Of a stretch of DNA of 59,002 bases, positions 1-19,691 are shown in pieces. The DNA is from Sideroxydans lithotrophicus (GTDB taxonomy: Bacteria > Pseudomonadota > Gammaproteobacteria > Burkholderiales > Gallionellaceae). Position 1 is the first letter of the stretch; each line of letters opens with the position of its first letter. The stretch spans positions 1 to 59,002 of the forward strand of contig DYJI01000007.1 in the NCBI GenBank assembly GCA_020723185.1, read 5' to 3'. The notes under the pieces are model-generated. The model had not been told where the DNA came from. It saw only the letters and a list, made by a program, of their open reading frames with translations, and made no database searches. The position numbers and the translations under genes are program-made.

Positions 1-112
1 CCTTTCGCTTTCGCTAAGTTTAGTGTGTTGCGTCGACGGATTGAATCCGCACCGAGAAACAGCCATTGCTGATTTCGAAACAAGGCTTTTCTAATGCGCG
101 ACGGGGTCTTTT

Positions 113-985
113 TCAGCTGAGCGCAATGCGGTCGAGGTAACGCGCGCGGTACAGCAGCCGGGGCTGCTGCGGATCGTCGGTGAAGGCGCTGCGGTCATGC
201 AGCACGTTGTTGCAGAGCAGGCCCATGCCGGGTTGCAGCGTGCCGTGGAAGACCAGCGGCAGATCGGCGGCGAGCAGGGCTTCCAGTGCGGCGACGGCAG
301 CCTGGGTGGCCTCATCTTTCTTCCATTCGATGCTGCGTGTGCGGGCGGTGTAGCGCATGTGCAGCTTGCCTTCGGCATCCACTGAAAATACGGGGCCACC
401 CTGTGCAGGACGCACGCCGTCGTTCTCATCGACACGTTCGGGGATGGTCATGGCGTCGGGCTGCATCAGCGCGGTGATGTGCGCGGGATCCTGCTCACGT
501 AGCATGAGGTAGGCCAGTTCATGGTCCATCAGGCGGTTGTGGCCGCCGCTGGCGGCGGCGCGCACGCAGTGCAGCACCATGGCGCGTATCTGCCGTTCCG
601 GCGGGTTGTAGTAGCCGTCGGTATGCCACTTGATGGGCTTGTCGGTGTAGGGGATGTAGTGCTGGCGGGTGCCGCCGTCGAACACGCGGATGGATGACAC
701 GCCGTCTTCTCCGGCCAGCCAGTTGGCATCCAGATGGTTCAGGCCGAACTGCTCGCCGAGTTTGCGCAGGATGTTGCTGTCTTCTTCCAGCATGGGGCTG
801 GCGTAGATGGCCATGTTGCAACGGCGGATGCGGTCGGCCAGTGCGCCATGCTCGGCGGGAGTGAGGGCGCGGGGGTCGCGCACCTCGACGATGAGGTCTT
901 CCATCGTGCGCGGGGCGCTCGCGAGTTTGGCATCGCGCCAGCGCTGCCAGGCAGCATCGTCATCAAGGTCGAACGGGTTGTTCAT
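113..985 (-). CDS. TauD/TfdA-family Fe(II)/2-oxoglutarate dioxygenase
   Basis: Predicted non-haem iron dioxygenase of 290 residues, cytoplasmic (no signal peptide). The facial triad is visible: H121-T-D123 within KWHTDGYY and the distal H263 in NNVLHDRSAF, followed by arginines (R276, R280) suited to binding 2-oxoglutarate. This is the usual TauD/TfdA layout and a normal length. The substrate cannot be read from sequence; taurine or another organosulfur compound is only a guess from the family. I start it at 985, where its ATG overlaps the upstream gene's stop (TGATG); an open frame continues to 1114 but runs inside that gene. It is the last gene of a six-gene operon divergent from dsr, so its substrate may be linked to sulfur metabolism. 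Confidence 0.85.
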   Translation of the reverse strand: MNNPFDLDDDAAWQRWRDAKLASAPRTMEDLIVEVRDPRALTPAEHGALADRIRRCNMAIYASPMLEEDSNILRKLGEQFGLNHLDANWLAGEDGVSSIRVFDGGTRQHYIPYTDKPIKWHTDGYYNPPERQIRAMVLHCVRAAASGGHNRLMDHELAYLMLREQDPAHITALMQPDAMTIPERVDENDGVRPAQGGPVFSVDAEGKLHMRYTARTRSIEWKKDEATQAAVAALEALLAADLPLVFHGTLQPGMGLLCNNVLHDRSAFTDDPQQPRLLYRARYLDRIALS

Positions 986-1620
986 CAGTCTCCGCTCGTG
1001 CTCTTGCGGGTGCGGGTCGGGCGCGGTTCCTGTTCCCACAGGCCGCGCAGCGTCTTTTCCAGTTGCTCGATGGAATAGGGTGCCTCGAAGCTGATCATCG
1101 GGTCGATGATCCACTTCGCATCTTCTTCGTTCAGCACCTGGCCGATGTTGTAGGCAAGCAAGCGGTAGAAGCCGTAGTCCGGCCCCTGTTCGGTGTAGTC
1201 GTAGTCGGCATATTCACCGGCACGCCGGTTCACCAGATCGATGAAGTCCTGTTTGCAGGTCGCAAGGTCGCTCTCCAGCAGTCGGCTGCGGTTCTCGGCA
1301 TAGGTCTCGCCGCTGCGGTTGGCCAGGTTGCCGGTGAAGATCGCGCGATCCTCGGCCGACAGTTGGCGGTAGGCGATGCGGTCCGCCGCGAGGATGAGGA
1401 ACACCAGATACTCGGCGAGGAAATCCAGATACTGCGGACCGACGGCGATCTCGAAGTCGTACTTGCGCGTGTTGCGCAGTGCACCATCGGCGATGCGCCA
1501 CAGGGAAAAGGCGAGCGCGTCCGATATCTCCTGCGGCGTGCGTTCGCGACCTTCCTTGAACCAGCGGCTCTTGATGCGGATCGCGACGTGCGCCTTATCC
1601 CTTGCGGATGTAGAACTCAT
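985..1620 (-). CDS. Hypothetical protein of the dsr-divergent operon
   Basis: Unrecognised 211-residue soluble protein, rich in charged and helix-forming residues, with no signal peptide or membrane segment. It has one cysteine (in LATCKQDF) and a tyrosine/aspartate-rich stretch around EYADYDYTEQGPDYGFY. It overlaps the 3' end of the TusA-tandem gene by 26 bases and its stop overlaps the dioxygenase start, so the three are almost certainly co-translated. The overlap is the main reason to believe the gene is real. I cannot assign a function; a structural or adaptor role for the operon is possible. Confidence 0.75.
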   Translation of the reverse strand: MSSTSARDKAHVAIRIKSRWFKEGRERTPQEISDALAFSLWRIADGALRNTRKYDFEIAVGPQYLDFLAEYLVFLILAADRIAYRQLSAEDRAIFTGNLANRSGETYAENRSRLLESDLATCKQDFIDLVNRRAGEYADYDYTEQGPDYGFYRLLAYNIGQVLNEEDAKWIIDPMISFEAPYSIEQLEKTLRGLWEQEPRPTRTRKSTSGD

Positions 1621-2077
1621 GCACGCCTGCCGAGGTTTCGACGGTCTCCAGCACGGTCATGCCGGTGCTTGCGGCCCAGCCTTCGATGTCCGAAGCTACG
1701 CCCGGGCAATCGCTTACCAGTTTGAGCACTTCCTTGGCCTGCATGCCGTTCAGCAGTTTCTTCGCTTCGACGATGGGGCCGGGGCAGACCGCGCCGCGGA
1801 TATCCAGCGAGACGTGGGCGTGCGGATGCTTGGCGCTCTTGCCGCCTTTCTGGATGTGGTAGCCGGTGCTGCCCCCTTCCATCTTCTCGGTCTTGATGAT
1901 CGAATTGCCGGTCAGCTCCGCCCAGGAGAACAGGTCGTCCGGGGTGCCGGGACAGTTGGAGATCAGCAACAGCACCTGACCAGGGTTCAATTCGTCCACC
2001 ATGCGCTTTGCGCCGATCAGCGGCTTGGGGCAGGACAAGCCCTTCATGTCCAGTACTACATGCACGTTATCCATCAT
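1595..2077 (-). CDS. Tandem TusA-domain sulfur carrier protein
   Basis: 160-residue protein made of two TusA/SirA-like domains. TusA proteins carry a persulfide on the cysteine of a CPxP motif and hand sulfur to DsrE or TusD-type partners. Domain 1 (about residues 5-77) has C16 in CPKP; domain 2 (about 86-160) has C98 in CPGP, so both carrier cysteines are present. Each domain also repeats a later NCPG/DCPG cysteine (C42, C124). Single-domain TusA is about 80 residues, so this is a clear fusion or internal duplication. The start at 2077 (MMD) has an AGGAG six bases upstream. It lies between a DsrC-like gene and an unknown gene in the operon divergent from dsrA. No single-domain tusA is seen in this window. 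Confidence 0.9.
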   Translation of the reverse strand: MMDNVHVVLDMKGLSCPKPLIGAKRMVDELNPGQVLLLISNCPGTPDDLFSWAELTGNSIIKTEKMEGGSTGYHIQKGGKSAKHPHAHVSLDIRGAVCPGPIVEAKKLLNGMQAKEVLKLVSDCPGVASDIEGWAASTGMTVLETVETSAGVHEFYIRKG

Positions 2078-2087
2078 CTCGTTCTCC

Positions 2088-2417
2088 TTAGTAGCCGCCC
2101 TTGCCGTAGGGCTGGGGCAGGCCCGCGACCTTGGCAGCCTGTTTGGCCGGGCCGGTTGGGAACAGATCATACAGCGCCTTGCTGTCGGCCTCGGGCCAGA
2201 ATTCGTTCACGCCCTTGAGCATGTTGCGGAAGTTCGGGGTGTGGCCTTCTTCGCGATATTGCTCGCGCATGTAGTTGATGATCTCCCAGTGTTTCGGGGT
2301 CAGCTCGATGCCTTCGGCAGCGGCGATCACGCCCACCACTTCCTCGCTGTAATCCGGCTCCAGCAGGTAGCCGTCGTCATCGGTTGCAAGTTCGTTACCA
2401 GCTACTACGTATCCCAT
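2088..2417 (-). CDS. DsrC/TusE-family protein lacking both redox cysteines (RspA-like)
   Basis: 109-residue member of the DsrC/TusE family, recognisable by the EGIELTPKHWEIINYMREQY core, the DLFPTGPAKQA segment and the GLPQP C-terminal arm. In true DsrC two C-terminal-arm cysteines carry the sulfur; here the first is alanine (KQAAKVAG) and the penultimate position is glycine (ends GKGGY), and no cysteine remains in the protein. It therefore cannot act as a persulfide or trisulfide carrier. Such members have been grouped as RspA, proposed regulatory sulfur-related proteins. A DNA-binding or decoy role toward DsrAB/DsrK is an inference. Start at 2417 has an AGGAGG upstream. The canonical dsrC lies at 7100. 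Confidence 0.9.
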   Translation of the reverse strand: MGYVVAGNELATDDDGYLLEPDYSEEVVGVIAAAEGIELTPKHWEIINYMREQYREEGHTPNFRNMLKGVNEFWPEADSKALYDLFPTGPAKQAAKVAGLPQPYGKGGY

Positions 2418-2456
2418 CGTTGCCTCCTTCGTTTGTTGAGTCAAAGTTTTCGAATG

Positions 2457-3044
2457 TCACTCCAGGCCGGAGATGACCTTGTACGGCACAAAGATGCCGC
2501 AACCCAGATTGCGCCCGCTACCCATACCGGCGTATTGGACACGCAAGGAATCCTCGTCTTTCAGGTCGTGCATCACCAGGCTGAAGCCGCTGATGTCCTG
2601 ACCATCCGTATTCAGCCGGTGATGCCGTCCGCAGATCAGTTTGCTCTGCACTTCGAGTGCATCCAGCGCGGTCTGCACCATCTGCATGAATTCGATCTCG
2701 TCGGCAGGCCCCACCACCAGATGCGCGGCCAGGGTGGGGTAGGGCTGGATCTCGCGTGTCTTGCCTTGCCCCAGACGTACTTCGCTGTCGCCGATCTGCA
2801 AGGCTTGTTCGGAGAGCGCAAGCACGGCATCCAGCATGTCCAGCGGTGTGCGCACCAGTAGCTTGCTGCGCTTGGGGAGCAGCAGTTCGCCATTGTTGGT
2901 GGGGCCGCGCAGGGGGATCACGCCCACATCCTCGCTGTCGGCCAAGGTCGGCGCGATACGCAGCAGCGCCGCCCACAACTTGCGGGGATAGTCGGCGGGG
3001 ATGCTTTCGCCGTGCAGATCGAAGCTGATCTCGATCGCGCTCAT
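2457..3044 (-). CDS. Cas6-like RAMP protein (Cas6/Cmx6-type) outside a CRISPR locus
   Basis: 195-residue protein resembling the Cas6/Cmx6 (MYXAN-type) endoribonuclease family. I see an N-terminal strand pattern with HGESIPADYPRKLWAALLRI, a middle RSKLLVRTP segment, and near the C terminus (173-183) the RAMP glycine-rich loop GMGSGRNLGCG, which fits G-h-G-x5-G-h-G and is followed by IFVP. Cas6 proteins bind and cut CRISPR-repeat hairpins; histidines H141 and H142 could be catalytic, but I cannot prove this. No repeats, cas1/cas2 or effector genes are near. Its ATG overlaps the upstream gene's stop (ATGA), and it sits between a tiny protein and a DsrC-like gene, so its RNA target, if any, is probably not a crRNA precursor. 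Confidence 0.75.
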   Translation of the reverse strand: MSAIEISFDLHGESIPADYPRKLWAALLRIAPTLADSEDVGVIPLRGPTNNGELLLPKRSKLLVRTPLDMLDAVLALSEQALQIGDSEVRLGQGKTREIQPYPTLAAHLVVGPADEIEFMQMVQTALDALEVQSKLICGRHHRLNTDGQDISGFSLVMHDLKDEDSLRVQYAGMGSGRNLGCGIFVPYKVISGLE

Positions 3045-3256
3045 GCCTGCTGCTGGGCCTCTGCCCATTTCTGCATGACGGCGGCCCAGTGTTTGGCCGT
3101 CTCGGGGTCGATGTCGAAGATGGTGAAGCGCTTGCCTTCACGGATGCGGACGCGCAGCATGTTCAAGCCGCCTTCTTCATGGTCGACATGCTGCAGATCG
3201 ATCTGCTGCTTTCCGATCGGTGCGGTGAACTGGTCGATAGTGCTGATATGTGCCAT
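3041..3256 (-). CDS. Small conserved-looking protein, first gene of the dsr-divergent operon
   Basis: 71-residue soluble protein without cysteines. It has a predicted beta-rich first half (GKQQIDLQHVDHEEGGLNML, then RVRIREGKRFTIFDID) and a short C-terminal helix ending in an acidic/glutamine tail. I do not recognise it with confidence. It is the first gene of the minus-strand operon and its stop overlaps the start of the Cas6-like gene by four bases, which argues for translational coupling and possibly a functional partnership. Its promoter must lie in the region shared with dsrA. Confidence 0.7.
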   Translation of the reverse strand: MAHISTIDQFTAPIGKQQIDLQHVDHEEGGLNMLRVRIREGKRFTIFDIDPETAKHWAAVMQKWAEAQQQA

Positions 3257-3535
3257 GGTTGTCCTGTGCGGGTTTCCCCGGTTGCCTTAGTCAATGGGTC
3301 GGGTAATAGGGCGAGTCTAGCCGTAATGCCCCCTGCATTGGAATACTACCGGGGAAGGTAAAAGCACCCCCCATTAGAGTTACCTAACATACCCGCTCAG
3401 GGTGATGGTTTGCCGGGGGTCACCCTCGTAATATGCTCAACCATTAGAAACCGGGACGAAGAGCCCGGACAAGATCAACCAACCCTGCCGAGCACTGCAC
3501 TAGCCAGAGGCAAGCAAATCGAAAGGAAAGACATT
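3257..3535. promoter_or_regulatory. Divergent promoter region between the Cas6-like operon and dsrA
   Basis: 279-base intergenic stretch, lower in GC than its flanks and full of C-runs and G-runs. A TAATAT at 3429-3434 could be a -10 box for dsrA but has no convincing -35, which suits an activator-dependent promoter. A purine-rich GAAAGGAAAG precedes the dsrA ATG at 3536. No gene is seen here. Confidence 0.6.
3367..3387. promoter_or_regulatory. Candidate regulator-binding element upstream of dsrA
   Basis: CCCCCCATTAGAGTTA followed by a TACCTAA heptamer. The same C6-CAT...GTTA arrangement occurs at 57412-57429 between sat and soeA, and a related element lies at 26923-26960 upstream of sqr. 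TACCTAA matches six of seven positions of the NarL heptamer TACYYMT. Binding by the NarL-type regulator at 26969-27631 is an inference. Confidence 0.4.
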
Positions 3536-4831
3536 ATGGCCAAGAAGCTGCATGACACCCCTAATCTGGATCAACTGGAGTCCGGCCCATGGCCTAGCTT
3601 CGTCACCGGCCTGAAGCATCTGGCCAAGGACAAGGACTATGTGGTCGACCTGCTGGGTCAACTGGAAGAGTCCTACAAGACCAAGAAGGGTTACTGGAAG
3701 GGCGGTACGGTCGGCGTGTTCGGCTACGGTGGCGGTGTGATCCCGCGTTTCACCGAGCTGAAGAACGAAGACGGTTCTCCCAAGTTCCCTGATGCTGCCG
3801 AATTCCATACGCTGCGTGTGATGCCGCCTCCCGGCATGCACTACGATACCAACACCCTGCGCAAGTTCTGCGACATCTGGGAAGAGCATGGTTCCGGCCT
3901 GATCGCCTTCCACGGCCAGTCCGGCGACATCATGTTCCAGGGCGCGACCACCGAGAACGTTCAAAAAGCCTTCGACGAGTTCAATGAGATGGGCTTCGAC
4001 CTCGGCGGTGCAGGCCCGGCCGTGCGTACTTCCATGTCCTGCGTGGGTGCCGCGCGCTGCGAGCAGTCCTGCTATAACGAGGCACAGGCGCACCGTGCCG
4101 TGCTGAACACCTTCCTCGATGACATCCATCGTCCTTCGCTGCCGTACAAGTTCAAGTTCAAGTTCTCGGGCTGCCCGAACGACTGCATGAACTCGGTGCA
4201 GCGCGCCGACATGGCTGTCATCGGCACATGGCGCGACAATATCCGTACCGATGAAGCGCTGGCCAAGAAGTGGTTCGCCAAGCACGGCATGGATGAGCTG
4301 GTGAACGATGTGGTCGCCCGTTGCCCGACCAAGGCCTTCCAGGTCAAGGAGATCTCCAAGATCAAGTCCGGCGAGCATATCTCCAGCGTCAAGGTGAGCG
4401 ATACCCATGCTGTCGAGATCGACAACCAGGATTGCGTGCGCTGCATGCACTGCATCAACGTCATGACCGGCGCACTGGCTCCGGGCAAGGACAAGGGTGC
4501 GACCGTGCTGGTCGGCGGCAAGAGCCACCTGAAGATCGGCGGCCTGATGGGTACCGTGGTGCTGCCGTTCATCAAGCTGGATACCGAAGAAGAGGTCGAG
4601 AAGCTGGTCGATTTCGCCCAGCGTACCATCGACTTCTTTGCCGAGAACGCGCTGGAGCACGAGCGTACCGGCGAGATGATCGAGCGTATCGGTCTGGCCA
4701 ACTTCCTGGATGCGATGGAAGTCGAGGTCGATCCCGCCATGGTCAATTCACCGCGCATGAACCCCTACGTCCGTACCGACGGTTGGGACGAAGAAGTCGC
4801 CAAGATCAACGCCAAGAAGCAAGCAGCCTGA
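3536..4831 (+). CDS. dsrA: Reverse-type dissimilatory sulfite reductase alpha subunit
   Basis: DsrA, 431 residues, the usual length. With DsrB it forms the cytoplasmic siroheme enzyme that, in sulfur oxidisers, releases sulfite from DsrC-bound sulfur. Cluster ligands are visible: C169 and C175 (SCVGAARCEQSC) and C213/C217 (SGCPNDC) for the siroheme-coupled [4Fe-4S], and C263 with C300-x2-C303-x2-C306 for the inserted ferredoxin domain. The start is the ATG at 3536 (MAKKLHD) after a GAAAGGAAAG site; upstream in-frame codons lie in the promoter region. First gene of the dsr operon, 11 bases before dsrB. Dense CG-rich codon use matches its neighbours. Confidence 0.97.
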   Translation: MAKKLHDTPNLDQLESGPWPSFVTGLKHLAKDKDYVVDLLGQLEESYKTKKGYWKGGTVGVFGYGGGVIPRFTELKNEDGSPKFPDAAEFHTLRVMPPPGMHYDTNTLRKFCDIWEEHGSGLIAFHGQSGDIMFQGATTENVQKAFDEFNEMGFDLGGAGPAVRTSMSCVGAARCEQSCYNEAQAHRAVLNTFLDDIHRPSLPYKFKFKFSGCPNDCMNSVQRADMAVIGTWRDNIRTDEALAKKWFAKHGMDELVNDVVARCPTKAFQVKEISKIKSGEHISSVKVSDTHAVEIDNQDCVRCMHCINVMTGALAPGKDKGATVLVGGKSHLKIGGLMGTVVLPFIKLDTEEEVEKLVDFAQRTIDFFAENALEHERTGEMIERIGLANFLDAMEVEVDPAMVNSPRMNPYVRTDGWDEEVAKINAKKQAA

Positions 4832-4842
4832 GGAGATAGAAG

Positions 4843-5937
4843 ATGAATCAAGCCGTCCAAGCCGCACCCGCAGCAAAGCGCAAGCCGAAGGAGACCGGCG
4901 TACCGGAGAATACCCAGTACCTGCACCCGACGCTGGCGAAGAACTATGGCAACTGGAAGTATCACGACCGTCCGCGTCCGGGCGTGCTGCATCACGTGGC
5001 ACACAGCGGCGACGAGGTATGGTCCGTGCGTGCCGGTACCCAGCGCCAGATGGATGTCTACACCATCCGCAAGCTGTGCGACATCGCCGACAAGTTCGCA
5101 GAAGGCCGTGTGCGCTTCACCATCCGTTCCAACATCGAATTCATCGTGTCTGACGAGAAGAAGGTGGCACCGCTGATCGCCGAGCTAGAAAAGAGCGGCT
5201 TCCCGGTCGGTGGTACCGGCAACTCGGTGACCATGATCGCCCACACCCAGGGCTGGCTGCACTGCGACATCCCCGGCACTGACGCTTCCGGCGTGGTGAA
5301 GGCGCTGATGGATGAACTGTATGAAGAGTTCCGCCGCGAAGAGATGCCGAACCGTGTGCACCTGTCCACCTCCTGCTGCGAGATCAACTGCGGCGGTCAG
5401 GCTGACTTGGCCATCATCGTGCAGCACACCAAGCCGCCCGTGATCAATCACGATCTGGTCGCCAACGTCTGCGAACGTCCGACCGTGGTGGCGCGTTGCC
5501 CGGTTGCGGCGATCCGCCCGGCTATGGTCAACGGCAAGCCTTCGCTGGAGATCGACGAGTCCAAGTGTATGTGCTGCGGTGCTTGCTACCCTCCATGCCC
5601 GCCGATGCAGATCAACGATCCGGAATTCTCCAAGCTGGCGATCTGGGTCGGTGGCAAGAACTCCAACGCGCGCGGCAAGCCGACCTTCATGAAGATGGTT
5701 GCCGCCGGTCTGCCCAACAATCCGCCGCGCTGGCCGGAAGTGAGTGCCGTCGTGAAGCGCATCCTCACCGTCTACAAGGAAGATGCACGTGGCTGGGAGC
5801 GTCTGGCTGACTGGATCGATCGTATCGGCTGGCCGCGCTTCTTCGAGAAGACCGGTCTGCCGTTCACCAAGTACCTGATCGACGACTGGCGCGGTTCGCG
5901 TTACAACCTGAACGCTTCGGCACATATCCGTTTCTGA
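4843..5937 (+). CDS. dsrB: Reverse-type dissimilatory sulfite reductase beta subunit
   Basis: DsrB, 364 residues, partner of DsrA in the alpha2beta2 sulfite reductase. The siroheme/[4Fe-4S] segment STSCCEINCGGQ and the ferredoxin-domain motif CMCCGACYPPCPP are intact. A good Shine-Dalgarno (GAGGAG) precedes the ATG. The oxidative (reverse) direction is inferred from the accompanying dsrEFH, dsrL and sqr genes, which sulfate reducers usually lack. Confidence 0.97.
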   Translation: MNQAVQAAPAAKRKPKETGVPENTQYLHPTLAKNYGNWKYHDRPRPGVLHHVAHSGDEVWSVRAGTQRQMDVYTIRKLCDIADKFAEGRVRFTIRSNIEFIVSDEKKVAPLIAELEKSGFPVGGTGNSVTMIAHTQGWLHCDIPGTDASGVVKALMDELYEEFRREEMPNRVHLSTSCCEINCGGQADLAIIVQHTKPPVINHDLVANVCERPTVVARCPVAAIRPAMVNGKPSLEIDESKCMCCGACYPPCPPMQINDPEFSKLAIWVGGKNSNARGKPTFMKMVAAGLPNNPPRWPEVSAVVKRILTVYKEDARGWERLADWIDRIGWPRFFEKTGLPFTKYLIDDWRGSRYNLNASAHIRF

Positions 5938-5950
5938 GCGAGGTGACTGA

Positions 5951-6310
5951 ATGAAGTTCGGGATCGTAGTCAACGAGGGGCCGTATCAGCATCAGGCGAG
6001 CGATTCCGCTTACCTGTTCGCCAAGGCGGCCATCGAGGCGGGACATGAAGTGTGGCGTGTGTTCTTCTATCACGACGGCGTGAACAACGCCTCGCGCCTG
6101 ACCGAGCCGCCGCAGGACGACCGCAACATCGTCAACCGCTGGACCAAACTGGCGGAAGAGCACAAGGTCGACCTGGTGGTGTGCGTGGCGGCTGCATTGC
6201 GTCGCGGCATCAAGGAAGAGAACCTGGCGACGGGATTCCGCATCTCGGGTCTGGGGCAACTGGTCGAGTCCGGCATCAAGTGCGACCGTCTGGTCACCTT
6301 CGGCGATTGA
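5951..6310 (+). CDS. dsrE: Sulfur relay protein DsrE (TusD-like)
   Basis: DsrE, 119 residues, sulfur-carrying subunit of the alpha2beta2gamma2 DsrEFH complex, which takes sulfane sulfur from TusA/rhodanese and passes it to DsrC. The active cysteine is C78 in LVVCVAAALRRG, the position known from Allochromatium. It is 13 bases after dsrB and 10 before dsrF, so part of the same transcript. DsrEFH is a marker of sulfur oxidisers. Confidence 0.96.
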   Translation: MKFGIVVNEGPYQHQASDSAYLFAKAAIEAGHEVWRVFFYHDGVNNASRLTEPPQDDRNIVNRWTKLAEEHKVDLVVCVAAALRRGIKEENLATGFRISGLGQLVESGIKCDRLVTFGD

Positions 6311-6320
6311 GGAGAACGGA

Positions 6321-6686
6321 ATGAGCGATCAAAAGAAATTCATGTTCGTGAACCGCAAGGCGCCTTACGGCACGATCTACGCGCTGGAATCGCTGGAAGT
6401 GGTGTTGATCACCGCGGCTTTCGACCAGGATGTCTCGCTGGCTTTCCTCGACGACGGTGTCTACCAGCTGAAGAAGGGCATGCAGACCAAGGGCATCGAG
6501 ACCAAGAACTTCTCGCCCACCTACCGTGCGCTGGAAGACTACGACGTCGAGAAGCTGTACGTCGAAAAGGAAGCGATGGAAGCACGCGGTCTGAACGAGG
6601 ACGACTTCATCGTCGGCGTCACCGTGCTGAGCCGTGCCGAGATGGGCAAACTGATGGACGAGCAAGACGTCGTCCTGAGTTTCTAA
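6321..6686 (+). CDS. dsrF: Sulfur relay protein DsrF (TusC-like)
   Basis: DsrF, 121 residues, structural subunit of DsrEFH. It has the DsrE-fold pattern (FMFVNRKAPYGTIYALESLEV at the start, and a FLDDGVYQLKKG loop) and contains no cysteine, which fits its non-catalytic role in the complex. Preceded by GAGGAG and placed between dsrE and dsrH. Confidence 0.95.
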   Translation: MSDQKKFMFVNRKAPYGTIYALESLEVVLITAAFDQDVSLAFLDDGVYQLKKGMQTKGIETKNFSPTYRALEDYDVEKLYVEKEAMEARGLNEDDFIVGVTVLSRAEMGKLMDEQDVVLSF

Positions 6687-6696
6687 GGGGAAGAAC

Positions 6697-6996
6697 ATGC
6701 TACATATCGTGAACAAATCCCCGTTGACCAGCGGCACGCTGGAAAGCTGCCTGAACACCATGGTCGACGGCGGCGATGTCCTGCTGATCGAAGACGCGGT
6801 GTATGCCGCGACTGCCGGCAACGCCTTCGAATCCAAGCTGACCGCAGCCATGGGCCGTTGCAAGGTGCATGTGCTGATGCCGGACCTGGAAGCGCGCGGT
6901 CTGGGCGACCGCCTCATCGCAGGCGTGGCATCGGTGGACTATGCGGGATTCGTCGGACTGACGGTCAGCAACAAGAATTGCCAATCCTGGCTGTAA
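6697..6996 (+). CDS. dsrH: Sulfur relay protein DsrH (TusB-like)
   Basis: DsrH, 99 residues, smallest subunit of DsrEFH. The family start MLHIVNKSP and the LLIEDAVYA segment are visible. C18 lies near the position of the conserved DsrH cysteine, and further cysteines occur at C55 and near the C terminus (NCQSWL). Followed by about 100 bases before dsrC, the largest gap in the early dsr operon. Confidence 0.94.
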   Translation: MLHIVNKSPLTSGTLESCLNTMVDGGDVLLIEDAVYAATAGNAFESKLTAAMGRCKVHVLMPDLEARGLGDRLIAGVASVDYAGFVGLTVSNKNCQSWL

Positions 6997-7021
6997 CAAG
7001 AATCGCGTTGCGATAACGGTT

Positions 7022-7047
7022 CGCCCCACGGCGGGACATGCGGGGCG
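7022..7047 (+). other. Hairpin between dsrH and dsrC
   Basis: Inverted repeat CGCCCC (7022-7027) and GGGGCG (7042-7047) with a 14-base loop and no U-run after it. It sits in the dsrH-dsrC gap and could be an RNA-processing or 5'-stabilising stem that lets dsrC be expressed at a higher level than its neighbours; this is inference. Confidence 0.4.
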
Positions 7048-7099
7048 GAATGAGGGAAGAGTAGTAGTAGCAACCATTATTTTTTGAAGGAGATACAAC

Positions 7100-7435
7100 A
7101 TGGCTAGCATCGAAGTCGGCGGCAAGAGCTACGAAACAGACGAGGAAGGTTATCTGGTCAACCTGGCAGACTGGAACGCGGAAGTCGCGGACTACATCGC
7201 CAAGACAGAGAACATCGATATGACCGAGCAGCACTGGGAAGTGATCAACTTCCTGCGCGAGTACTTCGACGAGTACCAGATCGCACCGGCAGTGCGCGTG
7301 CTGACCAAGGCCATCGGCAAGAAGCTGGGTGCCGAGAAGGGCAACAGCGAGTACCTGTACGGCCTGTTCCCGTACGGTCCCGGCAAGCAGGCGTGCAAGA
7401 TCGCCGGTCTGCCGAAGCCGACCGGTTGCGTTTGA
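7100..7435 (+). CDS. dsrC: DsrC sulfur carrier with both arm cysteines
   Basis: Canonical DsrC, 111 residues. The C-terminal arm carries both conserved cysteines, C99 (KQACKIAG) and penultimate C110 (PTGCV), which form the trisulfide that DsrAB oxidises. This is the functional carrier among three DsrC-family proteins in the window; those at 2088 and 45663 lack these residues. A strong GAAGGAGAT ribosome site precedes the ATG, which fits a highly expressed protein. Next comes dsrM after 27 bases. Confidence 0.97.
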   Translation: MASIEVGGKSYETDEEGYLVNLADWNAEVADYIAKTENIDMTEQHWEVINFLREYFDEYQIAPAVRVLTKAIGKKLGAEKGNSEYLYGLFPYGPGKQACKIAGLPKPTGCV

Positions 7436-7462
7436 TCTGACGCAGGGAAGGGTGACCACACG

Positions 7463-8188
7463 ATGAGCATGATCTTCGCAATCCTGTTCTATCTCGCGAC
7501 GTTGTTGTTCGTCGTGGGGTTGCTCTCCCGTATCAAACTCTATGCGCAGACACCTGCGCCGCTGAAGATCCCGACCACGCCCGCGCCCACCACGAAGACC
7601 GGTGTGGCTTTCCGCCTGACGCGCGAAGTGGTGTTCTTCGAAAGTCTGTTCAAAGCCAATCTGTGGACGTGGGCCGCCGGCTGGTTGTTCCACACCAGCC
7701 TGTTGCTGGTCACCCTGCGCCATCTGCGCTATTTCACCGATCCCGTGTGGGGTTGGGTCGCATTCATCCAGCCGTTCGGCATCTACGCGGGCATCACCAT
7801 GCTGCTGGGGCTGTGCGGGCTGTGGGCGCGCCGCCTGTTCGTCGAGCGCATCCGTTACATCTCCACCCCGTCCGACCATCTGTGGCTGGTCCTGCTCATC
7901 GTCATCGCGGTCACCGGCCTGCTGATGCAATTCGTCGCGCATACCGATGTGGTCGCCGTGAAGACCTACTTCCTCGGCCTGCTGCATCTCGACATCGGCT
8001 CGCTGCCGTCTGATGCGCTGCTGTTGCTGCACCTGTTCCTCGTTTTCGCACTCCTGGCGCTCTTCCCTCTAAGCAAGCTGTTACATGCACCAGGAGTCTT
8101 TTTTTCGCCCACCCGCAACCAGACCGACGATTGTCGCGAGCATCGCCACCTGAGTGCCTGGGCCGGCAAGTTGGAATCGGAGAAATAA
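7463..8188 (+). CDS. dsrM: DsrM membrane cytochrome b subunit
   Basis: DsrM, 241 residues, haem b membrane subunit of DsrMKJOP, related to NarI. About five hydrophobic helices are seen, beginning with IFAILFYLATLLFVVGLL; membrane histidines such as H71 (LFHTSL) and those in FVAHTD and LLLHLF are candidate haem ligands. It would exchange electrons between the quinone pool and DsrK, which is oxidised or reduced with DsrC. It ends one base before dsrK. Related to Isp1 at 38394. Confidence 0.93.
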   Translation: MSMIFAILFYLATLLFVVGLLSRIKLYAQTPAPLKIPTTPAPTTKTGVAFRLTREVVFFESLFKANLWTWAAGWLFHTSLLLVTLRHLRYFTDPVWGWVAFIQPFGIYAGITMLLGLCGLWARRLFVERIRYISTPSDHLWLVLLIVIAVTGLLMQFVAHTDVVAVKTYFLGLLHLDIGSLPSDALLLLHLFLVFALLALFPLSKLLHAPGVFFSPTRNQTDDCREHRHLSAWAGKLESEK

Positions 8189-8189
8189 G

Positions 8190-9719
8190 ATGGCTGACTA
8201 CACCGCACCAGCCTATCGCACCATCCCCATCGTCCCCGCGCTGAAGCCGGGCGCGATGGAAGGCAAGGGCCCCTTCATCGCCAACGACAAACACCAGGAA
8301 GCGCTGGGCTTCCCCGGCCAGCTGGTGGAAGACTGGCACGACAAGGCCATCGCCAAGATGGGCGATCTGCTGGGCAAGTTCCGCTCGCTGCGGGTCTACA
8401 TGGACGCCTGCGTGCATTGCGGTGCCTGTTCCGACAAGTGCCACTACTTCATCGGCACGCAGGATCCGAAGAACATGCCGGTGGCGCGTCAGGATCTGAT
8501 GCGCAGCATCTACCGCCGTTACTTCACCTTCGCCGGAAAATATTTCCCGAAACTGGTCGGCGCACGCGACCTGACTCGCGAGGTGCTGGACGAGTGGTAC
8601 AACTACTACCACCAGTGTTCCGAATGTCGCCGTTGCTCGGTGTTCTGCCCGTACGGCATCGACACCGCCGAAGTGACCATGGCTGCGCGTGAGATCCTTG
8701 CCTCGGTCGGCATGGGCCAGAAGTATTCCAACGAGATCATCGGCAAGGTGCACAAGATCGGCAACAACCTCGGCCTGCCCGAGCCGGCCCTGCGCGACAC
8801 GCTGGAAGGTCTGGAAGAGGACGTCAAGGAAGACACCGGTCTGGACATCAAATTCCCGCTGGATGTGAAGGGCGCAGAAGTGCTGCTGATCACACCGTCC
8901 GCCGATTTCTTCGCCGAACCGCACATCGACGGCCTGATCGGCTATGCGAAGGTGTTCCACGCCACCGGCACCAGCTGGACGCTGTCCTCGATGGCTTCCG
9001 AGGGCGCGAACTTCGGCATGTTCATCGGCAGCTATGAACAACTGCGCAAGATCGCGCTGCGCATCCGCGAGGCCGCGCTGGAACTGGGCGTGAAGCGCAT
9101 CGTGGTGGGCGAGTGCGGCCATGCCTGGCGCGTGGCGTACAGTTTCTGGAACACGCTGAGCGGCGTGGGCGACGGTGCGGACGAGACCGACCGCTTCGCA
9201 CAGATGCTGCAGAAGCAGCTCGATCACCGCTACAAGCAACCGACGCATATCTGCGAGTTCACCTGGGATCTGATCCAGCGCGACGCGCTGAAGTTCGACA
9301 AGTCCAAGAACGACAGATTCGTCATCACCATGCACGACTCGTGCAACGTGGCGCGCGGTTCGCGCATGGGCGACCTGCCGGGCGGACAGTTCGAGATCCC
9401 GCGCAACATCATCAAGGCGGTGGCCAACAACTTCGTCGAGATGGACGCGAACACCACGCGAGAGCGCACGTTCTGCTGCGGCGGCGGTGGCGGTTTGCTG
9501 ACCGACGACCTGATGGACTTGCGTGTGAAGGGGGCCCTGCCACGCATGGAGGTGTTGAATCAGGCCGTGCAGGAACATGGTGTGAACTACATGGCAGCCA
9601 TCTGCGCCATCTGCAAGACACAGTTTTCAAAGATCATGCCCGTCTACGGTTTCGACCGCAGGATGGTGGGCGGTGTACACCAGTTGGTCAGTAACGCGAT
9701 CATCTTGGGCGATAAGTAA
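8190..9719 (+). CDS. dsrK: DsrK HdrD-like iron-sulfur protein
   Basis: DsrK, 509 residues, cytoplasmic catalytic subunit of DsrMKJOP and proposed site of DsrC disulfide/trisulfide chemistry. Two [4Fe-4S] motifs (CVHCGACSDKC and CSECRRCSVFCPYG) are followed by the CCG-type noncubane cluster ligands: GECGHAW, DSCNVARG, CCGGGGG and CAIC. The start is the ATG at 8190 (MADYTAP), just after the dsrM stop. The hydrogenase protein at 36996 has the same architecture. Confidence 0.95.
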   Translation: MADYTAPAYRTIPIVPALKPGAMEGKGPFIANDKHQEALGFPGQLVEDWHDKAIAKMGDLLGKFRSLRVYMDACVHCGACSDKCHYFIGTQDPKNMPVARQDLMRSIYRRYFTFAGKYFPKLVGARDLTREVLDEWYNYYHQCSECRRCSVFCPYGIDTAEVTMAAREILASVGMGQKYSNEIIGKVHKIGNNLGLPEPALRDTLEGLEEDVKEDTGLDIKFPLDVKGAEVLLITPSADFFAEPHIDGLIGYAKVFHATGTSWTLSSMASEGANFGMFIGSYEQLRKIALRIREAALELGVKRIVVGECGHAWRVAYSFWNTLSGVGDGADETDRFAQMLQKQLDHRYKQPTHICEFTWDLIQRDALKFDKSKNDRFVITMHDSCNVARGSRMGDLPGGQFEIPRNIIKAVANNFVEMDANTTRERTFCCGGGGGLLTDDLMDLRVKGALPRMEVLNQAVQEHGVNYMAAICAICKTQFSKIMPVYGFDRRMVGGVHQLVSNAIILGDK

Positions 9720-9740
9720 CTTCAATCTGGAGGCATAGCG

Positions 9741-11714
9741 ATGTCGGCAACAATCGAAACCCCAAAAAATCTGACCTTCCGTCGTTACAAGGACGGCGAT
9801 AACAAGGTGAAGCGCTGGAACGAGAAGATCTTCCAGTCCAGCTATTCCTACAAGTGCCCGACCTATATCCAGTCCACACCGCCGTGCCAGGGCAGCTGCC
9901 CGGCCGGTGAGGACATCCGTGGTTATCTGGCCATCGTGCGCGGTACCGAGAAGGTGCCGATGGGCGCAGACGGCAAGACGCCCGTCATGCCATGGCAGGA
10001 ATATGCCTGGCGTCGCCTGACCGAAGCCAACCCGTTCCCGGCCGTCATGGGACGCGTCTGCCCGGCACCGTGCGAATCGGGCTGTAACCGCAACGAAGTG
10101 GAAGACCACGTCGGCATCAACTCCGTCGAGCACTTCCTCGGTGAATACGCGATCGCCAACAAGCTGAAGTTCAACAAGCCCAACGTCGCGCCGACCGGGA
10201 AGAAGATCGCCGTACTGGGCGGCGGCCCTGCAGGTCTGTCAGTGGCCTACCAGCTCACGCTGAAGGGCCATGAAGTCACCATCTTCGACGATCATGAGTT
10301 CCTCGGCGGCATGATGCGTTACGGCATCCCCGGTTTCCGTACCCCGCGCGACGTGCTGGACGCAGAGATCCAGCGCATCCTCGACCTGGGCGTGAAGACC
10401 CGCATGAAGTGCCACGTCGGCAAGGACATCACACTGGAACAGATCCGCAAGGAATTCGATGCGGTGTTCCTCGGCATGGGCGCACAGGCCGGCCGCGCCC
10501 TGCCGATCGCCGATTCCGATGCACCGAACGTGGTGACCGCGACCGCCTTCCTGAAGGCCTTCAACGACGGTCGTCTGCAGCATGTCGGCAAGCGCGTGGT
10601 GGTGGTCGGCGGTGGCGATACCTCCATCGACGTGGCGACCGTCGCCCGTCGTCTGGGCCATATCAGCCATGCCAACCCGACCGATACGGAGCTGGCGATC
10701 ACCGGCCAACTGGCACACGACGTGGCAGAGATATCCGCCAAGGAAGGTGCGGACGTCACGCTGACCTCCGTGTTCCCCATCGACAAGATGCAGGCCAACA
10801 AGCACGAGATCGAGCAGGCGCTGGCGGAAGGCATCGCCATCAAGGGCGGTCTGGTGCCGATCGGTATCAAGCGTGATGCTAACGGCCGTGCCACGGCGCT
10901 GCGCGTGATGCAGTGCGAGGCCAAGTTCGTCGGCAGCAAGCTGGAGATCAAGAACGTCGAAGGCAGCGAACAGGACATCGAAGCCGACCTGATCGTGTCC
11001 GCGATCGGACAGGCGGTCGATTTCACCGGTCTGGAAGAGTTCAACAACGGCAAGGGTGCAGTGTCCACCGACCGCAACTATGTGGTGAACGGACAGAAGG
11101 GCGTGTTCGCCGGCGGCGACGTGATCCGTCCGCACCTGCTGACCACCGCCATCGGCCACGGCTCCATCGCCGCTGACGGCATCCACAACTTCCTGCTGGG
11201 TATCGACCTGGAGAAGCGTCCCAAGATCGACGCGCACCAGTTCGACCTGATGCGCAAGCTGGCGGAGAAGGGTATCGAGATCAAGGAGAACCACGAACCG
11301 CTGCGCGGCACTTGCAACACCAATATCGCCGTGCACAACTTCGACAACCGTTCGGACCGCTACATCATCCCGCACGACAAGCTGTTCCTGGGCCACTTCG
11401 GTTTCACACCGCGCAACGTCCGCAACGTCATCACGCTGGACAAGGAGAGCGCGCTGGGCAACTTCCAGGATCGTCTGGGTGTGCTGGGCGAGAAGGAGGC
11501 CGTCTCGGAGGCCAAGCGTTGCATGAGTTGCGGCATGTGCTTCGAATGTGACAACTGCGTGGTTTACTGCCCGCAGACCGCCGTGTCGCGCGTCAAGAAG
11601 TCCGAAGCGACACTCGGCCGCTATGTCACGACCGACTACGACAAGTGCATCGGCTGCCACATCTGTGCCGATGTTTGCCCGACGGGTTATATCCAGATGG
11701 GTCTGGGTGAGTAA
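9741..11714 (+). CDS. dsrL: DsrL NAD(P)H:acceptor oxidoreductase
   Basis: DsrL, 657 residues, GltD-like flavoprotein that links DsrAB to the NAD(P) pool. Order: N-terminal iron-sulfur segment (CPTYIQSTPPCQGSC), FAD site GGGPAGLSVAYQL near residue 158, NAD(P) site VVVGGGDTSID, and a C-terminal 2[4Fe-4S] ferredoxin domain (CMSCGMCFECDNCVVYC and CIGCHICADVC). Presence of dsrL between dsrK and dsrJ is typical of sulfur oxidisers. The stop is six bases before the dsrJ ATG. Confidence 0.95.
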   Translation: MSATIETPKNLTFRRYKDGDNKVKRWNEKIFQSSYSYKCPTYIQSTPPCQGSCPAGEDIRGYLAIVRGTEKVPMGADGKTPVMPWQEYAWRRLTEANPFPAVMGRVCPAPCESGCNRNEVEDHVGINSVEHFLGEYAIANKLKFNKPNVAPTGKKIAVLGGGPAGLSVAYQLTLKGHEVTIFDDHEFLGGMMRYGIPGFRTPRDVLDAEIQRILDLGVKTRMKCHVGKDITLEQIRKEFDAVFLGMGAQAGRALPIADSDAPNVVTATAFLKAFNDGRLQHVGKRVVVVGGGDTSIDVATVARRLGHISHANPTDTELAITGQLAHDVAEISAKEGADVTLTSVFPIDKMQANKHEIEQALAEGIAIKGGLVPIGIKRDANGRATALRVMQCEAKFVGSKLEIKNVEGSEQDIEADLIVSAIGQAVDFTGLEEFNNGKGAVSTDRNYVVNGQKGVFAGGDVIRPHLLTTAIGHGSIAADGIHNFLLGIDLEKRPKIDAHQFDLMRKLAEKGIEIKENHEPLRGTCNTNIAVHNFDNRSDRYIIPHDKLFLGHFGFTPRNVRNVITLDKESALGNFQDRLGVLGEKEAVSEAKRCMSCGMCFECDNCVVYCPQTAVSRVKKSEATLGRYVTTDYDKCIGCHICADVCPTGYIQMGLGE

Positions 11715-11720
11715 CGCGAC

Positions 11721-12218
11721 ATGAACCTACTGCGCGATCAATCTGCTGCGTTGCGTACTCGCTCGCCACTCGCCTACCTGCAAGGTATGTCTCGCGGCTC
11801 GCTCCGTCGCGCCTTGCATATTGATCTGCTCGCGACGGTTCCTGCTCGCGTTACCAGCGCCTTGTTGTTAGTGCTGGTGTGTGTCGCACAGCCGTCCTAT
11901 GCAGTAGAGGCGCAGCCCAAGCTGGACATCGGCAAGGGCGGACAGTGCGTGGAAGATACGCAGTGGATGCGCAAGAACCACATGCACCTGCTCAAGCACG
12001 GGCGCGATGATGCGTTGCGTCTGGGCATCCGTGACGAGAAGCACAGTCTGAAGACCTGCATCGAGTGTCATGCCAGCACCAAGGATGACAGTGTGACCGC
12101 GCGTGCGGACAGCTTCTGCGTCGGTTGTCACAAGTACGAAGCAGTGAAGCTTGATTGCTTCGAGTGCCATTCCGGCACGCGCAAGAGTGCGTGGCTGCAA
12201 CAGAGGAACGCGAAATGA
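11721..12218 (+). CDS. dsrJ: DsrJ periplasmic triheme cytochrome c
   Basis: DsrJ, 165 residues as read from 11721, electron-transfer subunit of DsrMKJOP facing the periplasm. Three haem c sites are visible: CIECH, CVGCH and CFECH. A signal segment (about residues 42-61, SALLLVLVCVAQPSYA) precedes them and may act as anchor. The N terminus is odd: about 40 residues before the hydrophobic core are encoded by a palindromic repeat (11736-11826), so this end is longer and more arginine-rich than usual. The alternative start M23 at 11787 also lies inside the repeat. Its stop overlaps the dsrO ATG. Confidence 0.9.
   Translation: MNLLRDQSAALRTRSPLAYLQGMSRGSLRRALHIDLLATVPARVTSALLLVLVCVAQPSYAVEAQPKLDIGKGGQCVEDTQWMRKNHMHLLKHGRDDALRLGIRDEKHSLKTCIECHASTKDDSVTARADSFCVGCHKYEAVKLDCFECHSGTRKSAWLQQRNAK
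11736..11826. repeat. Imperfect palindromic repeat element within the dsrJ 5' end
   Basis: About 91 bases flanked by inverted ends GATCAATCTGC (11736-11746) and GCATATTGATC (11816-11826; 10 of 11 match as inverted copies). In the centre TACCTGCAAGGTA (11775-11787) forms a five-base stem with a three-base loop. The arms between are CG-rich and partly complementary. The layout is that of short intergenic palindromic repeats common in betaproteobacteria; family assignment was not tested. Confidence 0.6.
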
Positions 12219-12931
12219 GCGACATGGACATGGATCGTCGTAACTTCCTCAAGACCTCGGTCGGCGCGGCGGCGGTCGCGATCGCGCCGGGCATGATGTT
12301 GTATTCGGTCGCGCAGGCCAAGGGCGAAGGCGCATCGAGCAAGGTGCGCTGGGGGATGCTGATCGACACCAACCAGTGCAAGCCCGGCTGCAACGATTGT
12401 GTCACTGCCTGTAACAACGAGAACGGATTGTCCGGAGAGACCAAGGCCACCGACTCTCAATGGATACGCAAGATCGACATCAAGGACATCAGCACCGGCC
12501 GCGAGATCTCGCTGCCGATGATGTGCCAGCACTGCGAGCATCCGCCCTGTGTGGACGTGTGCCCGACCAATGCTTCCATGAAACGTGCGGACGGCATCGT
12601 GCTGGTCGACAAACACCGCTGCATCGGCTGCCGTTACTGCATGATGGCCTGCCCGTACAAGGCGCGTTCCTTCGTGCACGAACCGCTGACCGGCCAGAAC
12701 CCGGACGTGCCGCGCGGCAAAGGTACGGTCGAGAGTTGCACGCTGTGCGTGCATCGTATCGACGTGGGCGGCAAGCCGGCCTGTTCCGAAGCCTGCCCGA
12801 ACCAGGCGATAGTGTTCGGCGATCTGAACGATGAGAACAGCGAGATCGCCCAAAAGGTGCGCAGCGTAGCATCGGTGCAGGTGCGTGCCGATCTGCGTCT
12901 GAACCCCGGCGTCCGTTACCAGGGAATTTGA
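12215..12931 (+). CDS. dsrO: DsrO periplasmic iron-sulfur protein
   Basis: DsrO, 238 residues, ferredoxin-like subunit of DsrMKJOP exported by the Tat system (DRRNFLKTS at residues 7-15). Four [4Fe-4S] ligand groups are seen: CKPGCNDCVTAC, CQHCEHPPCVDVC, CIGCRYCMMAC and CTLCVHRI...CSEAC. It passes electrons between DsrJ and the quinone-reactive DsrP. The ATG at 12215 overlaps the dsrJ stop (ATGA), which fixes the start. Confidence 0.95.
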   Translation: MSDMDMDRRNFLKTSVGAAAVAIAPGMMLYSVAQAKGEGASSKVRWGMLIDTNQCKPGCNDCVTACNNENGLSGETKATDSQWIRKIDIKDISTGREISLPMMCQHCEHPPCVDVCPTNASMKRADGIVLVDKHRCIGCRYCMMACPYKARSFVHEPLTGQNPDVPRGKGTVESCTLCVHRIDVGGKPACSEACPNQAIVFGDLNDENSEIAQKVRSVASVQVRADLRLNPGVRYQGI

Positions 12932-12933
12932 CC

Positions 12934-14124: not shown

Positions 14125-14143
14125 TCCTGCAGGAAAGGCTGCC

Positions 14144-17526: not shown

Positions 17527-17569
17527 TCAGCTTCACTTCGCAGTCCAACTAAAAACAGGGAGAGACAAG

Positions 17570-18463: not shown

Positions 18464-18476
18464 GCAGGAGGCAACG

Positions 18477-18944: not shown

Positions 18945-18955
18945 GCGAGGACGCC

Positions 18956-19183
18956 ATGCCCTATTACATCTACCGCATCACCGAGCGCCCGATCCGCATG
19001 CTGGAGAAGCTCGAGCAGCACGAGGTCTACAAGGAAGCTTCCGCGCGTGCCAAGGAACTGCGCAAGCAAGAGGTGTGGGGCGAGAACGGCCAGATCAAGA
19101 TGATCCACGCCGAGAACGAACTGCAGGCCGAAGATCTGCTGAACGAGGTGCGCGAACCGGCACCGCAACTGGGCGACGACTGA
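18956..19183 (+). CDS. Small hypothetical protein
   Basis: 75-residue charged protein starting MPYYIYRITERPIRMLEKLE, with a short strand followed by a long helix rich in lysine and glutamate and an acidic tail. The pattern (YRI, then a residue-by-residue charged helix) suggests a small adaptor. No function known. Close spacing to the ankyrin gene and to the next gene (4 bases) supports one operon. Confidence 0.7.
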   Translation: MPYYIYRITERPIRMLEKLEQHEVYKEASARAKELRKQEVWGENGQIKMIHAENELQAEDLLNEVREPAPQLGDD

Positions 19184-19187
19184 CGCA

Positions 19188-19625: not shown

Positions 19626-19691
19626 AAGCGGCTGCTACCGCTACAATGCAACACTGGGAAAGAAGCATCAATTACAGGTAACGAACCAGGA

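What the first reader, a model, noticed from the sequence alone, without database searches (positions are those of the whole stretch)
113..3256. A six-gene operon divergent from dsr combining a Cas6-like RNA protein, a cysteine-less DsrC, a double TusA and a dioxygenase
Seen: six minus-strand genes with overlaps or very small gaps, sharing a promoter region with dsrA. Established: Cas6 proteins bind or cut RNA hairpins; TusA is a sulfur carrier for tRNA thiolation and for Dsr; cysteine-less DsrC relatives have been proposed as regulators. Inference: the operon could link sulfur flux to an RNA target, for example by cutting, binding or modifying dsr mRNA or a tRNA. I know of no described system with this mix.
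Basis: partly seen in the sequence, partly recalled or inferred. Interest (0 to 1): 0.85.

Follow-up and report, generated by a model that had tools for sequence, protein, structure and literature searches.

The report
CRISPR Cas6 relative in sulfur operon
Next to the genes that sulfur-oxidizing Gammaproteobacteria use to burn sulfur sits a conserved operon whose protein named 'Cas6' looks like a CRISPR RNA-cutting enzyme, yet it follows the sulfur genes rather than CRISPR, so an RNA-binding protein appears to have been recruited for sulfur metabolism.

Summary
The operon is real and conserved. The key result is wider: in 370 genomes of the class, Cas6 family PF09559 and dsrA occur together in 122, dsrA alone in 3, PF09559 alone in 6, neither in 239; 91 of 129 PF09559 places lie within 6 kb of dsrA, all divergent. 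CRISPR does not explain this: 63 of the 122 lack Cas1, and the only Cas1 locus of the window's genome is type II (Cas9), which needs no Cas6. The protein is predicted to fold as Cas6 (TM 0.89) and keeps the glycine-rich loop; its putative catalytic His is Tyr here and in 77 of 80 named relatives, but His in 79 of 80 class loci. Its usual partner is a DsrC paralogue lacking both active cysteines (62 of 80 class loci). DUF6967 and double TusA are lineage additions. No conserved RNA target was found. Best reading: a Cas6 domesticated for rDsr, binding (elsewhere perhaps cutting) an unknown RNA, linked to sulfur flux through the DsrC mimic. Association strong; RNA role inferred; target unknown.

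The parts
2457..3044 (-). Cas6/Cmx6-like protein, 195 aa, predicted two-RRM Cas6 fold with glycine-rich loop; Tyr19 where the six cyanobacterial relatives examined have His
2088..2417 (-). Cysteine-less DsrC paralogue (RspA-like; that name is recalled), ends KGGY where DsrC ends in CV
3041..3256 (-). DUF6967 (PF22295), first gene of the operon; order-level addition
1595..2077 (-). Double TusA, two CPxP motifs (CPKP, CPGP); lineage addition
985..1620 (-). Protein of unknown family, predicted mostly helical, no solved fold match
113..985 (-). TauD-like 2-oxoglutarate/Fe dioxygenase (KWHTDG and LHDRS kept); last gene here, upstream of the Cas6-like gene in 57 of 80 class loci
3257..3535 (.). Divergent intergenic region with conserved DNA blocks (about 3338-3409) and no conserved RNA fold
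3536..4831 (+). dsrA, divergent partner

Best explanation
The Cas6-like protein is a CRISPR-independent (domesticated) Cas6 that belongs to the Dsr sulfur-oxidation pathway of Gammaproteobacteria. SHOWN by computation: near-perfect co-occurrence with dsrA, divergent linkage, co-divergence with DsrA, no dependence on CRISPR, a predicted Cas6 fold with the RNA-binding loop kept, and the frequent company of a DsrC paralogue without active cysteines. INFERRED: it binds a hairpin-type RNA; where the His is kept (most of the class) it probably cuts it, while the window's copy (His to Tyr) is a binder or a slow cutter. SPECULATIVE: the RNA is dsr mRNA or an sRNA acting on it, and the Cys-less DsrC, which cannot carry sulfur, is an adaptor or sensor that mimics DsrC towards DsrAB, DsrEFH or TusA and so tunes the RNA step to sulfur flux.
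For: Co-occurrence 122/3/6/239 in 370 genomes, Fisher p 5e-86; 91 of 129 places within 6 kb of dsrA, all divergent. Co-divergence: correlation of Cas6-like and DsrA distances 0.81 over 75 loci, 0 of 999 permutations as high. CRISPR-independence: Cas1 absent from 63 of 122 such genomes; the own genome's only Cas1 match lies in a Cas9, type II Cas1, Cas2 and 28-repeat locus. Fold: pLDDT 93.8; Foldseek TM 0.89, 1.8 A to Cas6 of a type I-B CAST; profile E 3.2e-25. Glycine-rich loop: three Gly positions in 98 of 99 and the fourth in 99 of 99 proteins. dN/dS 0.16-0.20 in five comparisons. DsrC-like neighbour without Cys at either catalytic position in all 81 found, one row being a gap there. Two small genomes (1.16 and 1.54 Mb contigs) keep both genes, 6.6 and 8.1 kb apart, 256 and 517 kb from dsrA.
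Against: No conserved hairpin in the divergent intergenic region; no strong folding signal within 250 nt upstream of dsrA in 78 loci (mean z -0.78 to 0.27 by position; at most 21% of loci below -2, at the far end); none conserved upstream of dsrC. The window's copy lacks the putative catalytic His. NCBIfam and PADLOC file it as a CRISPR Cas6. Cas1 is slightly commoner in PF09559 genomes (61 of 128) than in others (89 of 242; odds ratio 1.57, p 0.046). 18 of 80 class loci had no DsrC-like gene within 2.5 kb. CRISPR loci without cas1 were not searched for in the own genome. No expression or binding data.
Confidence: 0.55

Rival explanations
1. The Cas6-like fold no longer handles RNA and serves as a protein scaffold, for example for DsrAB assembly or for holding the Cys-less DsrC on DsrAB.
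For: The protein varies more (mean pairwise identity 40%) than DsrA (71%) or the DsrC-like partner (55%); the putative catalytic His is gone in the window and 77 of 80 named relatives; no RNA target found.
Against: The glycine-rich loop is nearly invariant; Lys/Arg61 and Arg65 are shared with the CRISPR-linked proteins (by eye); His is kept in 79 of 80 class proteins, unexpected for a pure scaffold.
Confidence: 0.25
2. RNA sulfuration or tRNA role: with TusA and the TusE/DsrC-like protein the Cas6-like protein presents a tRNA for thiolation.
For: TusA and TusE act in tRNA 2-thiouridine synthesis (PMC3397948 passages); the window has a double TusA.
Against: The DsrC-like partner has no cysteine at the sulfur-carrying positions in the 81 found, so it cannot relay sulfur as TusE does; the TusA2 profile labelled no ORF in the 80 class loci.
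Confidence: 0.08
3. An ordinary Cas6 that serves CRISPR arrays elsewhere in the genome.
For: TIGR02807 and PADLOC Cas6 profiles match; five of six cyanobacterial plasmid relatives sit in I-MYXAN-type loci; G414 in the class has the gene beside a Cas3-sized ORF with Cas1 on the same contig; Cas1 slightly commoner in PF09559 genomes, p 0.046.
Against: Cas1 missing from 63 of 122 genomes; the own genome's Cas1 locus is type II; 59 of 80 fetched class loci carry dsrAB beside the gene; CRISPR-linked and dsr-linked copies fall on opposite sides of a branch (SH-aLRT 95.4).
Confidence: 0.04
4. Hitch-hiking: the operon stays beside dsr because the island is inherited as a block, with no shared function.
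For: Inheritance follows DsrA.
Against: The gene is kept though far from dsrA in 3 small genomes (a further 35 places are on other contigs, often from fragmented assemblies); dN/dS about 0.2 or below; only 3 of 125 dsrA genomes lack it.
Confidence: 0.05

Closest known systems
Cas6/Cmx6 of type I-MYXAN CRISPR systems (PF09559, TIGR02807)
   Same: Same family by profile, same glycine-rich loop
   Different: No cas3, cas8, cas7, cas5 or array beside it; follows dsrA; Tyr for His in the window; other side of the tree
Cas6 of the type I-B CAST transposon (PDB 8fcj, 8fcu)
   Same: Closest solved structure, TM 0.89; it too lacks His at this position (Asn in the profile alignment)
   Different: The CAST protein is part of a Cascade-DNA complex (entry titles)
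DsrC / TusE and Cys-less DsrC relatives (RspA, name recalled)
   Same: DsrC family by profile
   Different: Both C-terminal cysteines replaced, KGGY ending in the examples printed; beside the Cas6-like gene in 62 of 80 class loci
SsoCas6 (PMC3652601)
   Same: A Cas6 without the active-site His (passages)
   Different: It cleaves CRISPR RNA, using Lys and Arg residues

Membership tests
Cas6 protein family (PF09559 / TIGR02807) | Profile score above curated cut-off | tested here: met
   188 bits vs 26.7 and 155 bits vs 98.85
Cas6 protein family (PF09559 / TIGR02807) | Two RRM-like domains with glycine-rich loop before the last strand | tested here: met
   Predicted model pLDDT 93.8, TM 0.89 to a solved Cas6; GMGSGRNLGCG loop
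Cas6 protein family (PF09559 / TIGR02807) | Active-site His in or before helix 1 (not universal: PMC3652601, PMC3150331 passages) | tested here: not met
   Tyr19 at the start of the first long helix; Tyr in 77 of 80 named relatives; His in 79 of 80 class ORFs and 6 of 6 cyanobacterial ones. That this residue is the catalytic one is inferred from position.
CRISPR-Cas system type I-MYXAN | cas3, cas8, cas7, cas5 and a repeat array next to cas6 | tested here: not met
   Neighbours are dsr and operon genes; no direct-repeat array in the window
CRISPR-Cas system type I-MYXAN | crRNA processing activity | not testable with these tools
   needs biochemistry
DsrC / TusE sulfur carrier | Family profile | tested here: met
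   PF04358 115.5 bits vs 24.9, TIGR03342 97.3 bits vs 53.5
DsrC / TusE sulfur carrier | Sulfur-binding penultimate Cys (and the second Cys of DsrC) | tested here: not met
   No Cys in the window protein; 0 of 81 neighbours have either, one row being a gap; role of the Cys from PMC3397948 passages
TusA sulfur carrier | CPxP motif (recalled) | tested here: met
   CPKP and CPGP in the two domains
TauD/TfdA dioxygenase | HxD...H iron ligands (motif recalled) | tested here: met
   HTD and LHD present by eye in the sequence; PF02668 72.6 bits

The most novel reading that the evidence does not exclude
A Cas6 RNA endonuclease lineage was recruited once, early in gammaproteobacterial sulfur oxidizers, as a standing part of the rDsr pathway: paired with a cysteine-less DsrC that reads the state of the sulfur-carrier pool, it binds or cuts a dedicated RNA and sets dsr expression. 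This would be a Cas protein turned into a post-transcriptional regulator of energy metabolism, hidden because databases name it 'CRISPR-associated Cas6/Cmx6'.
Probability: 0.4. Interest if true: 0.92.

Novelty: new variant of a known kind. Interest (0 to 1): 0.8.

Why it matters
In the sampled Gammaproteobacteria most 'Cas6/Cmx6' family members sit in dsrA-bearing genomes (122 of 128) and look like dsr genes rather than CRISPR genes, so annotation of sulfur oxidizers is misleading. If the RNA role holds, it gives an RNA-level control point for dissimilatory sulfur oxidation and a rare case of a Cas RNA-processing protein recruited to core metabolism. It also gives the puzzling cysteine-less DsrC relatives a frequent partner that can be tested.

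Tried and rejected
RNA target search: consensus folding of 74 divergent intergenic regions (73 of the 77 extracted, 4 dropped by length, plus the window) gave at best -3.2 kcal/mol with one 3-bp stem; folding z-scores upstream of dsrA in 78 loci showed no strong peak; the dsrC leader folds in the window and its nearest relatives but gave no consensus stem worth the name across 68 aligned sequences; Rfam at E 0.1 over window 1-20000 gave one match far below its gathering score. ORF5's predicted fold matched no solved structure at E 0.001. No phage record matched the Cas6-like protein. PHROGs gave one match, for the DsrC-like protein, to a family of unknown function.

Literature: ten searches of the held library, several with only the top of the list shown. 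I saw the listings and, in eight papers, passages found by term (PMC10952691, PMC5944118, PMC3575380, PMC10989796, PMC3397948, PMC3652601, PMC3150331, PMC6452270); none was read whole. Nothing seen described a dsr-linked Cas6. The nearest is a figure legend in PMC10989796 that colours 'cas6' in a drawing of dissimilatory sulfur gene organisation in mangrove MAGs; no discussion of it was in the passages shown. Two searches with RspA and DsrC listed no paper holding both, so that name is recalled.

Errors on the way: one search aligned some loci on the wrong strand and was discarded. In one search the DUF6967 profile drifted onto the Cas6-like ORFs (its '99 of 99' is wrong; exposed, redone). L046 was lost from the profile-based set (99 of 100 loci), though tblastn finds its genes. 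One search stopped with an error after printing its table. In one search one truncated reference (L208) shows a gap where the full ORF has His, hence 78 of 80 there and 79 of 80; the 80 class loci include the CRISPR-like L214. In one search a second short fragment in G294 was not counted. In one search one Gallionellaceae row (L042) was put in the wrong label group, so that call's His/Tyr grouping is not used; L208 and L213 were dropped and the remaining rows halved before that tree, and some rows are unusual in letter make-up. In one search, 2 of the 72 TusA2 hits and 1 of the 82 DsrC-like hits are off-operon matches. Loci were fetched for 80 of the 128 PF09559 genomes; 48 were not. Of the 80, L180, L206, L208 and L236 showed none of the searched neighbours and were not typed further.
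Full report
WHAT IS THERE. The six minus-strand genes are present as described and match DUF6967, Cas6/Cmx6, DsrC, two TusA domains, no family, and TauD. The window is the first 59 kb of a 225,662-base contig, so the operon lies at a contig edge. Close relatives in the named genome collection are by title mostly Sideroxydans, Gallionella, Gallionellaceae and Nitrosomonadales bins (the best 80 of 421 were kept).

CONSERVATION NEARBY. PF09559 was found in 31 of 61 genomes (own included) of the relatives search. In 20 regions from 20 of these genomes, DUF6967, the Cas6-like gene, the DsrC-like gene and ORF5 lie divergent from dsrAB in 20 of 20, the TauD-like gene in 19 and the double TusA in 16. 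In the 80 named loci plus 2 order-level ones, DUF6967 was found in 80 of 82, ORF5 in 81, TauD-like in 77, dsrA in 79 (some contigs end early) and TusA2 in 72, of which 2 are off-operon.

CONSERVATION FAR AWAY. In 370 class genomes searched with a completeness floor of 90%, dsrA (TIGR02064) passed its cut-off in 123 and PF09559 in 128. Counting two genomes with partial dsrA, 122 have both, 3 dsrA only, 6 PF09559 only, 239 neither. A second search of the three dsrA-only genomes found nothing. Of the six PF09559-only genomes, G119, G140 and G170 carry the TauD-like gene beside it, G339 the DsrC-like gene and G323 the 64-aa protein, as if dsrA had been missed; G414 looks like CRISPR, with a Cas3-sized ORF and a WYL-like ORF beside the gene (by eye) and Cas1 on the same contig. 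Of 129 PF09559 places, 91 are within 6 kb of dsrA and all 91 divergent; 3 are on the same contig but far, 35 on another contig or without dsrA. None of 14 control genomes has PF09559. In a phylum-wide sample of 397, dsrA passed in 39: the 6 of the window's class all have PF09559, the 33 of other classes have none (oxidative and reductive dsrA were not told apart). The association, as sampled, belongs to the window's class, Gammaproteobacteria in the wide sense.

CLASS-WIDE CORE. I fetched loci of 80 of the 128 genomes. Of these 80, 65 have a 64-aa protein upstream of the Cas6-like gene (no Pfam match for the one scanned), 62 the DsrC-like gene, 59 dsrAB in the stretch and 57 the TauD-like gene. 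DUF6967 was found in 1 of 80. The TusA2 profile labelled no ORF in these 80 loci; it found 16 loci in all.

NOT CRISPR. Cas1 is in 61 of 128 PF09559 genomes and 89 of 242 others, a slight excess (p 0.046) that does not favour my reading; but 63 of the 122 dsrA+PF09559 genomes have none. The window's own genome has one Cas1 match; around it are Cas9 (652 bits), type II Cas1, Cas2 and 28 repeats. Type II processing uses an external RNase III instead of Cas6 (PMC6452270, passages). Loci without cas1 were not searched for. No direct-repeat array was found in the window. Two small genomes keep the gene far from dsrA: G411 (contig 1,160,782 bases, the size I recall for the clam symbiont Ca. Ruthia magnifica) and G344; in both it sits head to head with the RNase III gene, and a Cys-less KGGY DsrC-like gene is 6.6 and 8.1 kb away. 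G344 does have a Cas1 match; G411 is not in the Cas1 list.

WHAT THE PROTEIN LOOKS LIKE. AlphaFold2 on 55 sequences of the window and named loci gave pLDDT 93.8, pTM 0.88. Foldseek's best matches are Cas6 of the type I-B CAST (TM 0.89, 1.8 A, 29% identity), then other Cas6 proteins; a sequence profile agrees (E 3.2e-25). Of the four loop glycines, three are kept in 98 of 99 proteins and one in 99 of 99. At window residue 19, the first of the first long helix, the letter is His in 6 of 6 cyanobacterial plasmid Cas6/Cmx6 (five of six in loci with cas3, cas5 and other cas genes), His in 79 of 80 class ORFs (1 Asn; 78 of 80 with trimmed references), and Tyr in the window and 77 of 80 named relatives (2 His, 1 Asn). 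The solved CAST Cas6 has Asn there. In TtCas6e and PaCas6f the catalytic His is in helix 1, but SsoCas6 lacks one and still cuts (PMC3652601, passages). So I read Tyr as loss or strong reduction of cutting, with doubt. Purifying selection continues: dN/dS 0.16-0.20 against 0.03-0.06 for the DsrC-like gene, five comparisons each.

THE PARTNER. DsrC-family genes within 2.5 kb downstream on the same strand were found in 62 of 80 class loci and 19 of 19 order loci examined. None has a Cys at either DsrC catalytic position; the last position aligns to Gly in 80 of 81, the other row being a gap. 73 of the 81 have no Cys at all in the last 112 residues (54 of 62 class, 19 of 19 order). The examples printed end KGGY. 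The search was anchored on the Cas6-like gene, so it does not say how often such DsrC relatives occur elsewhere. DsrC binds sulfur at its penultimate Cys (PMC3397948, passages), and A. vinosum DsrC is said to bind DNA upstream of dsr (PMC5944118, passage). A Cys-less form could mimic DsrC without carrying sulfur; that is inference.

HISTORY. Cas6-like and DsrA distances correlate at r 0.81 over 75 loci (DsrA-DsrB 0.88; Cas6-like with DsrB 0.75; with the DsrC-like protein 0.74 over 71 loci), none of 999 permutations as high. In a quick tree of 56 rows, 7 rows (six cyanobacterial ones and L214 of G414) and the 49 others are two sides of one branch, SH-aLRT 95.4, which fits one recruitment and mostly vertical descent.

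WHAT WAS NOT FOUND. No conserved RNA element. The 77 divergent intergenic regions of the named and order-level loci share DNA blocks (TAGTATTNCAA in 37, ACCATCACCC in 26, CCCTAANGGG in 22 of 77; none in one mononucleotide-shuffled copy of each) but no fold. They look like promoter or operator DNA. In 59 class loci each motif occurs in at most one.

VERDICT. The association with rDsr and the independence from CRISPR are strong. The step to 'acts on RNA' rests on fold and residues; the step to 'regulates dsr by RNA' is a hypothesis. No description of a dsr-linked Cas6 was seen in the listings and passages of ten searches of an open-access library, which lacks most subscription journals; one figure legend colours cas6 in sulfur gene clusters (PMC10989796, passage).

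Noticed in passing
L254 (own genome C4:119000-137000), 5094-11357: Type II CRISPR-Cas9 locus: Cas9, type II Cas1, Cas2 and 28 repeats at about 66-base spacing.
   Followed up: partly
L255:8379-9783 and L256:9666-11044: In two small-genome sulfur oxidizers the Cas6-like gene lies head to head with the RNase III gene; it may be chance or hint at an RNA-processing context.
   Followed up: partly
window 3338-3409: Conserved DNA blocks (ACCATCACCC, ACYCTAANGGG, TAGTATTNCAA) in the divergent dsr promoter region of Gallionellaceae, each in at most one of 59 class loci.
   Followed up: partly
window 6997-7099: The dsrH-dsrC gap folds into a GC-rich hairpin in the window and nearest relatives, without a consensus across 68 aligned sequences.
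   Followed up: partly
L242:8974-9765: Gloeobacter morelensis plasmid Cas6/Cmx6 with no other cas gene annotated within about 9 kb, near phosphoadenosine phosphosulfate reductase family genes: perhaps another non-CRISPR use.
   Followed up: no
L162-L241, downstream of the Cas6-like gene: Class loci often carry further 2-oxoglutarate/Fe oxygenases near the operon (cluster 12 in 45 of 80 loci, one member PF13640; cluster 22 in 26 of 80, oxygenase-like by eye).
   Followed up: partly
L193, L186 and others (cluster 19): A protein of about 237 aa (no Pfam match for the one scanned) sits just upstream of the Cas6-like gene in 29 of 80 class loci.
   Followed up: no
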